NCBI GenBank assembly: GCA_964019135.1
Contig: OZ025252.1
Span: 8,696,823-8,760,822, forward strand
From: Arenicola marina
Lineage: Eukaryota > Annelida > Polychaeta > Arenicolidae
Reading direction: 5' to 3'
Length of the DNA: 64,000 bases
The position numbers and the translations under genes are program-made. Shown here piece by piece: positions 53,560 to 54,935 of this stretch. A model generated the notes under the pieces. The model had not been told where the DNA came from and ran no database searches. It was given only the letters and a program-made list of their open reading frames with translations. Numbering within the stretch: position 1 is the stretch's first letter; the number at the start of each line of letters is the position of its first letter.

Positions 53560-54429
53560 AAGATGCAAGATATGGAAATGAACTGCGGATTAGCGACAAG
53601 ACCATACAGAGAGCTACCGATCAGGTTATTACGGGAATTTGGGGGAGCGGGTTATGAGGGGGGTGGGCGTGCCTTAGGATATGGGATGGAAAAAACGAAT
53701 TTTTATTGAATCATATACCTGTCTCACAAGAAACCCCGACGTATATGTTCCGCCCGATGACAGATGTGACCTAGTGAACCCAGAGTGGGGGTCTCATGCG
53801 ACTGGCTGGTTCCCTGGTAAAATATTTCATACATTTCTGTTCCGACCAAATTTAGCACTATTATTTCATTTTGGAACATATGTGAAAGTAAAAGGTGGCA
53901 ATTTTTAGACAAAAACTGATCACACCCTTACGCGCGCGCTTCTACACTGTAACAGCATTTTCATGTTCATGTCTTACTGCTTCTTCGGAATATGCAACCA
54001 AAACGCTTCCTAACAGAGTCACGTGAGGAGCGTCCGTCGCGACTGTCCTGTCACTCCATCAACGCGCTTACAGCCGTCATGTGAACTAGGGCTAACGCTC
54101 CCCAGATCATAAACCACGTCAGTGCACGCATCAGCAGAGTGGACCGCTGGGACAGGAGGGGGGGGCGTGTCAGCTCCATGGAGACGCCGCCGCAACACCC
54201 GCGACCGTGACGTCACGCGGGAGTGACGTAAACATCCGTTTTCTGCCACATATCCTGACACGAGCGGCTCCCGTGAGGGAGGACCCGGGACAAACCTGAG
54301 GGTATGAGGACACCATCTAAACAACCCGAGAGAGCGAGCAGCCGCAATCAGTTAAAACTGTCACCAATGCTCTAGGAACAATCGCTTAATTTAAACGTGG
54401 CGTGTGGGTATTGCCTTCCGAGCAGCATA
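53560..54429. other. Unique DNA; small unrecognised frame
   Basis: A 75-codon plus-strand frame (53681-53908) and an overlapping minus-strand one lie here, neither with a recognisable domain. The right half (54150-54300) is CpG-rich and contains CRE motifs. It could be a promoter, but no downstream gene is visible. Confidence 0.45.
54208..54231. promoter_or_regulatory. CRE palindrome plus CRE variant
   Basis: A perfect TGACGTCA (54208-54215) and a TGACGTAA (54224-54231) lie 16 bp apart in CpG-rich unique DNA, about 220 bp before a tandem array full of the same palindrome. The CREB/ATF-type binding role is known for the motif; activity here is inferred. Confidence 0.4.
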
Positions 54430-54935
54430 TAACGTCAGATCACATTGTCAGCACACTGCACGAGGTCGTGACGTCAATAAAGATCACATTGTCACCACAC
54501 TGCACAAAGTCGTGACGTCAATAAAGATCACATTGTCAGCACACTGCACGAGGTCGTGACGTCAATAAAGATCACATTGTCAGCACACTGCAGTAGGTCG
54601 TGACGTCAATAAAGATCACATTACCAGCACACTGCGCGAGGTCGTGACGTCAATAAAGATCACATTGTCAGCACACTGCGCGAGGTCGTGACGTCAATAA
54701 AGATCACATTGTCAGCACACTGCGCGAGGTCGTGACGTCAATAAAGATCACATTGTCACCAAACTGCACAAGGTCGTAACGTCAATAAAGATCACAGTGT
54801 CAGGAGACAATGAACGAAGTCGTGACGTCAATAAAGATCACATTGTCACCACATTGCATGAGGTCGTGACGTCAATAAAGATCACATTGTCACCACGCAA
54901 TGAACGAAATCGTGACGCCAATAAAGTTCCCATGT
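54430..54935 (+). repeat. 44-bp array carrying a CRE in nearly every unit
   Basis: About 11 units of 44 bp. Perfect TGACGTCA occurs at 54469, 54513, 54557, 54601, 54645, 54689, 54733, 54823 and 54867. It is altered at 54777 (TAACGTCA) and 54913 (TGACGCCA). In each unit the palindrome runs into AATAAAG, so every unit also carries an AATAAA hexamer on the plus strand. One unit is two bases longer. The rest of the unit (GATCACATTGTC) is well conserved. Confidence 0.97.

What the first reader, a model, noticed from the sequence alone, without database searches (positions are those of the whole stretch)
54208..54935. Phased array of cAMP-response elements
Nine perfect TGACGTCA palindromes, mostly 44 bp apart, with two decayed ones, and two more CRE-type sites in the CpG-rich DNA just upstream. 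A perfect CRE is expected about once per 65 kb by chance, so this array would be an exceptional CREB/ATF binding platform, by design or by accident. The regular 44-bp spacing (about four helical turns) would place sites on nearly the same face of the helix.
Basis: partly seen in the sequence, partly recalled or inferred. Interest (0 to 1): 0.7.

Follow-up and report, generated by a model that had tools for sequence, protein, structure and literature searches.

The report
CRE-bearing minisatellite in CRE-rich genome
The row of evenly spaced cAMP-response sites is real, but it is an ordinary 44-base tandem repeat whose unit contains one such site, in an animal genome that is itself strangely full of that same 8-letter site.

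Summary
The array is real: nine perfect TGACGTCA at 54469-54874, seven of eight intervals exactly 44 bp, plus three one-off copies (not two) and two sites upstream. But it is a 44-bp minisatellite: one site copied with its unit, not nine independent events. No second copy of the array was found in the 867-Mb genome. The site is not clearly better conserved than the rest of the unit, and at 10.5 bp per turn neighbours are rotated about 69 degrees, so they do not share a face.

The "once per 65 kb" yardstick fails here. The genome holds 166,947 TGACGTCA (one per 5.2 kb), against 14,904 for the reversed word and 31,167 for TCACGTGA. It holds about 12,700 runs of CREs spaced like this, about 0.94 per 64 kb. 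Pairs per site are 0.25 for the CRE, 0.09-0.21 for control words. So the array is roughly what a minisatellite-rich, CRE-rich genome gives by default. The genome encodes a CREB, so binding is possible; occupancy is untested.

The real oddity is the genome-wide, sharply octamer-specific CRE excess, seen in unrelated repeat families and in single-copy DNA. Its cause is unresolved.

The parts
54425..54935 (+). Minisatellite of a 44-bp unit, about 11 units plus a partial first one; each full unit ends in a CRE followed by AATAA(A)
   Evidence: one genome match
54469..54874 (.). Nine perfect TGACGTCA (starts 54469, 54513, 54557, 54601, 54645, 54689, 54733, 54823, 54867)
54430..54437 (.). One-off CRE copy TAACGTCA at the left edge of the array
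54777..54784 (.). One-off CRE copy TAACGTCA inside the array
54913..54920 (.). One-off CRE copy TGACGCCA at the right edge of the array
54208..54231 (.). Single perfect CRE (54208-54215) and near-CRE TGACGTAA (54224-54231) in CpG-rich DNA; not part of the tandem repeat
53718..54107 (+). Decayed copy of a dispersed repeat family (415 first-look candidates in the genome, 40 scored); approximate ends

Best explanation
The array is an ordinary minisatellite. A 44-bp stretch that happened to contain one CRE was duplicated head to tail and expanded to about 11 units (duplication, then unequal exchange or slippage: inferred), so the CRE was copied with everything else in the unit. It lies in a genome that is both rich in minisatellites (about 75% of this window is tandem array) and about 11-fold enriched in TGACGTCA over the reversed word; a CRE-bearing run of this spacing is found on average once per 68 kb. 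The array can probably be bound by CREB/ATF dimers, since this animal encodes a CREB, but nothing seen here shows that the number, spacing or phase of the sites was selected. Shown: unit structure, no second copy found, CRE abundance, CRE-run abundance, no clear special conservation of the CRE, presence of a CREB gene. Inferred: the duplication mechanism and the binding.
For: Tandem unit of 44 bp in a window full of tandem arrays. CRE abundance 166,947 against 14,904, 31,167 and 10,915. CRE pairs 41,975 against 2,480, 2,868 and 2,299; triples 29,296 against 1,872; hence about 12,679 runs, one per 68 kb. Pairs per site 0.25 for the CRE, 0.17, 0.09 and 0.21 for the control words. Within the array the CRE has 2 changes in 88 cells, the rest 26 in 396, and 13 of 37 eight-column stretches change as little as the CRE. 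Helical phase scattered at 10.5 bp per turn. Array and unit core not found elsewhere, apart from one three-mismatch core.
Against: The CRE columns change less often than the rest (2.3% against 6.6%), and all 12 central CpGs are kept, which weak selection could also give. CREs enter runs somewhat more often per site than the one word for which runs could be counted (7.6% against 4.1%). By a stricter reckoning (summed unit length of 25 arrays times genome CRE density) only 0.19 CRE-bearing units were expected in this window. A perfect single CRE in CpG-rich DNA lies 250 bp upstream, as it might at a promoter.
Confidence: 0.8

Rival explanations
1. A selected CREB/ATF enhancer: the array is a homotypic cluster whose sites together raise transcription from a promoter in the CpG-rich DNA at about 54000-54430.
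For: Perfect sites, CpG kept in all 12 CRE-like copies, a single perfect CRE and CpG observed/expected near 1 just upstream, a CREB gene in the genome.
Against: CRE not clearly better conserved than other parts of the unit, and sites scattered round the helix; thousands of other CRE arrays; part of the upstream CpG-rich DNA belongs to a dispersed repeat. No gene model was found at the array, but none was sought beyond listing open frames of at least 120 codons.
Confidence: 0.12
2. CREs themselves seed arrays: sites bound by ATF/CREB proteins in the germline are hotspots of short tandem duplication, so the CRE is the cause of the array and not a passenger.
For: CRE arrays with unrelated units are very numerous; runs per site 7.6% against 4.1% for the reversed word. 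In human spermatogonia short insertions at bound sites often duplicate the motif and build clusters (PMC8559717, abstract and passages); CREM and CREB occupy thousands of sites in mouse male germ cells (PMC3091680, passages).
Against: Pairs per site for the CRE (0.25) are close to those of one control word (AGTGCACT 0.21), so most of the surplus of arrays follows from the surplus of CREs. No mutation data for this animal. For the related idea of ATF/CREB recombination hotspots as in fission yeast M26, the review PMC9775316 (passages) says that the ade6 CRE itself is not bound and not hot.
Confidence: 0.15
3. The array is part of a mobile element or long terminal repeat with repeated CREs in its promoter, as in some retroviral control regions (recalled).
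For: A dispersed repeat lies about 320 bp upstream; another copy of that family (L018) also has a CRE-bearing array beside it.
Against: The array has one match in the genome, and none of the 40 scored candidates matched the DNA between repeat and array (375 candidates were not scored). The L018 array has another unit (27 bp) and lies at the other end of the repeat; the other 18 copies fetched (L019-L036) hold at most two perfect CREs each.
Confidence: 0.02

Closest known systems
Minisatellites (VNTR-type tandem repeats with units of about 10-100 bp)
   Same: Head-to-tail 44-bp units, 89% matches, few indels, surrounded by many other such arrays.
   Different: Nothing tested differs; length polymorphism between individuals could not be tested.
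Perfect CRE (CREB/ATF site TGACGTCA) as counted in human and mouse
   Same: Same octamer; CREB-type bZIP present.
   Different: Printed whole-genome counts are 10,389 in human and 14,297 in mouse (PMC3464117, passages); here 166,947 in 867 Mb.
Binding-site clusters formed by local duplication (PMC8559717, PMC3188502)
   Same: Copies of one site multiplied by local duplication.
   Different: Those are short clusters in regulatory DNA of human and fly; this is a regular array of 44-bp units with no known regulatory role (abstracts and passages).
HIP1, the highly iterated palindrome of cyanobacteria (PMC4390886, passages)
   Same: An 8-bp palindrome strongly over-represented across a whole genome.
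   Different: Here an animal, a different octamer, a density of about 190 per Mb against about 500-2500 per million given there for high-frequency palindromes, and no methyltransferase link tested.

Membership tests
Minisatellite | Head-to-tail copies of a 10-100 bp unit | tested here: met
   period 44, 11.2 copies, 89% matches
Minisatellite | Copy-number variation between individuals | not testable with these tools
   one assembly only
Functional CRE cluster (CREB/ATF enhancer) | Consensus sites TGACGTCA | tested here: met
Functional CRE cluster (CREB/ATF enhancer) | A CREB/ATF protein in the organism | tested here: met
   CREB-type bZIP on contig C12, 42 of 46 residues identical to a CREB1 chain
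Functional CRE cluster (CREB/ATF enhancer) | Sites conserved beyond their surroundings | tested here: inconclusive
   2 of 88 against 26 of 396 cells changed; 13 of 37 eight-column stretches change as little
   69 degrees per unit at 10.5 bp per turn; met for the first seven sites only if the repeat were 11.0
Functional CRE cluster (CREB/ATF enhancer) | Occupancy and activity | not testable with these tools
   no ChIP, methylation or reporter data
Dispersed mobile element carrying a CRE array | Several copies of the array in the genome | tested here: not met
   (the DNA search skips simple repeats and very common words)
Highly iterated palindrome (HIP-like), for the genome as a whole | One palindromic octamer far above its one-mismatch neighbours and above control words | tested here: met
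   166,947 against 14,904 and 31,167; one-off variants average 20,416 against 14,381
Highly iterated palindrome (HIP-like), for the genome as a whole | Present outside repeats, in single-copy DNA | tested here: inconclusive
   8 of 8 tested contexts single-copy apart from one 98% match on a small contig, chosen for having no known relative; but 31 of 100 sampled loci fall in repeat or duplicate groups (my count)
Highly iterated palindrome (HIP-like), for the genome as a whole | Link to a DNA methyltransferase of matching specificity | not tested
   not searched

The most novel reading that the evidence does not exclude
The array is the visible tip of an animal counterpart of a highly iterated palindrome: in this genome TGACGTCA, with the flanks RTGACGTCAY, is multiplied and kept across unrelated repeats, minisatellites and single-copy DNA by a process tied to its own binding protein (motif-duplicating insertions in the germline, spread of CRE-promoted mobile elements, or an architectural role of an ATF/CREB protein), giving 167,000 copies.
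Probability: 0.2. Interest if true: 0.8.

Novelty: new member of a known kind. Interest (0 to 1): 0.35.

Why it matters
The array shows how misleading a uniform-chance yardstick is: a striking cluster of binding sites can be the expected product of repeat biology and of the word content of the genome. The by-product matters more. An animal genome with about 16 times the printed human number of perfect CREs (166,947 against 10,389), in a genome smaller than a third of the human one (human size recalled), makes it possible to test whether a transcription factor's site can be multiplied by mutation or mobile elements far beyond regulatory need.

Tried and rejected
Tried and rejected. (1) Mobile-element or LTR-borne array: one genome match for the array, none of the 40 scored candidates covering the DNA between repeat and array. 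(2) CRE as the clearly best-conserved part of the unit: not shown. (3) The CRE excess being due to one or a few repeat families: partly so. Of 100 sampled loci, 30 share their CRE-containing surroundings with another sampled locus and one more (L049) with the window and L025, in about eleven unrelated groups, some of them local duplicates (my count); eight of eight tested others gave only self-matches, bar one 98% match on a small contig. (4) CREs in general marking promoters or first exons: in the first sample (52 loci; 8 of 60 dropped as related) ATGGCG pointed away from the CRE 10:2 and GGTGAG was in 20 of 52 loci against 7.8 expected, but in the second sample (29 loci; 11 of 40 dropped as related) ATGGCG was 4:4, and GGTGAG showed no outward direction in either (7:10 and 4:4). 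Dropped. (5) Phage and plasmid collections: no match. (6) Rfam at gathering thresholds and tRNAs in the window: none. (7) Pfam and solved-structure searches of the L037 open frame: no Pfam family, one insignificant match. (8) Naming the species: not possible with these tools; an invertebrate animal is my inference from a single Jun-type and a single CREB-type bZIP among 15 listed matches. (9) ATF/CREB recombination hotspots (fission yeast M26) as the cause: left as a weak part of a rival. (10) A paper on such a CRE excess in an animal genome: none recognised in the listings (titles and abstract starts only; the library lacks most subscription journals).

Full report
What is there. The sequence at 54425-54935 is a tandem array of a 44-bp unit. 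Nine copies hold a perfect TGACGTCA, three hold a one-off version (54430, 54777, 54913), and a perfect CRE plus TGACGTAA lie upstream at 54208 and 54224. Seven of the eight intervals between the nine perfect sites are 44 bp; the other is 90. The number of perfect sites in the window (13) is far above shuffled expectation (mean 0.61, maximum 4 in 100 shuffles), but nine of them were copied with the unit. The array also holds AATAAA 11 times on the + strand and never on the - strand, so by the same counting one could as well call it an array of poly(A) signals (that name for the hexamer is recalled).

Where it lies. The window is contig C5:8696823-8760822 of a genome of 867,369,267 bases in 762 contigs. 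Twenty-five arrays that I picked from the 57 rows (overlapping and shortest rows left out) cover 75% of the window, and the 20 kb on either side also hold many tandem arrays. The array searched as DNA matched only itself (this search skips simple repeats and very common words). A 23-base core with up to three mismatches was found ten times in the array and once elsewhere with three mismatches. Upstream, 53718 to about 54107 is a decayed copy of a dispersed repeat (415 candidates, 40 scored). No Rfam family at gathering score and no tRNA was found in the window. Among 15 listed bZIP matches (237 candidates, 150 scored) are a CREB-type segment (L106; E 3.2e-23 to CREB1 chain 5zko_A, 42 of 46 residues identical) and a Jun-type one (L105; E 3.4e-19 to JunD chain 5vpa_B). 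I infer an invertebrate animal.

Is the CRE special within the array? On 11 aligned full units the CRE columns show 2 changes in 88 cells, the other columns 26 in 396; 13 of 37 eight-column stretches have no more changes than the CRE (the partial first unit was left out). The quiet parts are the two ends of the unit, the CRE included, and the middle is variable. At 10.5 bp per turn the nine sites sit at 0, 69, 137, 206, 274, 343, 51, 257 and 326 degrees; only at 11.0 bp per turn would the first seven align.

Is the array exceptional? This genome has 166,947, one per 5,195 bp, against 14,904 for the reversed word ACTGCAGT, 31,167 for TCACGTGA, a CpG palindrome of the same base make-up, and 10,915 for its reverse. 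CRE pairs separated by 20-50 bp number 41,975, against 2,480 for the reversed control, 2,868 for TCACGTGA and 2,299 for its reverse. Triples number 29,296 against 1,872. Pairs minus triples gives about 12,679 runs, one per 68 kb or 0.94 per 64 kb, against 608 for the control; under this rule the present array counts as two runs, with 7 pairs and 5 triples. From the listings I read at least five clusters with nine or more perfect CREs in the first 7.3 Mb of contig C1, with units unlike this one: at 876 kb (12, L003) and 1,529 kb (10, L010), at 3,052 kb (9), at 3,480 kb (11), and at 7,219 kb (at least 11). Pairs per site are 0.25 for the CRE and 0.17, 0.09 and 0.21 for ACTGCAGT, TCACGTGA and AGTGCACT; runs per site are 7.6% for the CRE and 4.1% for ACTGCAGT. 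So the surplus of CRE arrays follows largely from the surplus of CREs, with a modest extra tendency left over. Against this reading, summing the 25 unit lengths of the window and applying the genome's CRE density gives only 0.19 expected CRE-bearing units.

The genome-wide excess. It is sharp: with one mismatch allowed there are 656,924 matches against 360,056 for the control, so the 24 one-off variants average 20,416 against 14,381, while the exact octamer is at 166,947 against 14,904. It extends to the neighbouring bases: RTGACGTCAY, the flanks liked by CREB/ATF proteins (recalled), makes 96,008 of 166,947 (57.5%), the control 5,389 of 14,904 (36.2%). About 112,000 CREs lie outside such runs. 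Printed counts are 10,389 for human and 14,297 for mouse (PMC3464117, passages). I fetched 100 CRE loci, all in the first 12.2 Mb of contig C1. Thirty share their CRE-containing surroundings with another sampled locus and one more (L049) with the window and L025, in about eleven unrelated groups, some of them local duplicates (my count). Eight loci with no known relative, joined into one query, gave eight self-matches and one further match of 98% on a small contig. In 52 loci (8 of 60 dropped as related) the half-site TGACG was the commonest of 60 same-composition words outside perfect CREs (74, median 27), and CpG observed/expected was 1.03, against 0.77 in 18 loci fetched for the dispersed repeat. 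A promoter reading suggested by this first sample failed in the second. I leave the cause open: CREs in many unrelated repeat families explain a part, single-copy sites remain unexplained.

How it most likely works. A CRE-bearing stretch of 44 bp was duplicated in tandem and expanded. The sites could bind CREB/ATF, but I see no evidence of selection for their number, spacing or phase. In human spermatogonia, short insertions at bound sites often duplicate the motif and build clusters (PMC8559717, abstract and passages); in flies many neighbouring binding sites arose by local duplication (PMC3188502, abstract); CREM and CREB occupy more than 9000 loci in mouse germ-cell material (PMC3091680, passages). 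This offers a possible reason why CREs might seed arrays; the modest per-site difference found here supports it only weakly.

Verdict. The reading as an exceptional, phased platform does not hold.

Noticed in passing
whole genome G000: TGACGTCA occurs 166,947 times in 867 Mb, about 11 times the reversed word and about 5 times TCACGTGA; one-off variants are only about 1.4 times their control.
   Followed up: partly
contig C1 of G000, about 360.6-362.2, 380.6-385.0, 450.8-452.3, 718.2-723.2 kb: A recurring pattern of CREs with repeated spacings (8, 11, about 143 and 145 bp) in the listing, probably copies of one repeat carrying several CREs.
   Followed up: no
window 53718-54107: Copy of an abundant dispersed repeat family (415 candidates in the genome); the matched cores are about 70-86% identical to this copy.
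   Followed up: partly
L037 8412-9506, minus strand: A long open frame (364 codons) that does not look like a tandem repeat, perhaps an exon, with two perfect CREs (8889 and 9375) and no Pfam match.
   Followed up: partly
L040 5979-6301: A 16/32-bp tandem array whose unit carries GACGTCATGACG, near-CRE words without a perfect CRE.
   Followed up: no
window 1-64000: About 75% of the window is tandem array, including long ones with units of 55, 39, 61, 32, 34 and 83 bp.
   Followed up: no
L138, L139, L147 (contig C1): Three CRE loci share only about 27-43 bp that start at or next to the CRE, as if the CRE marked the edge of a short repeat.
   Followed up: no
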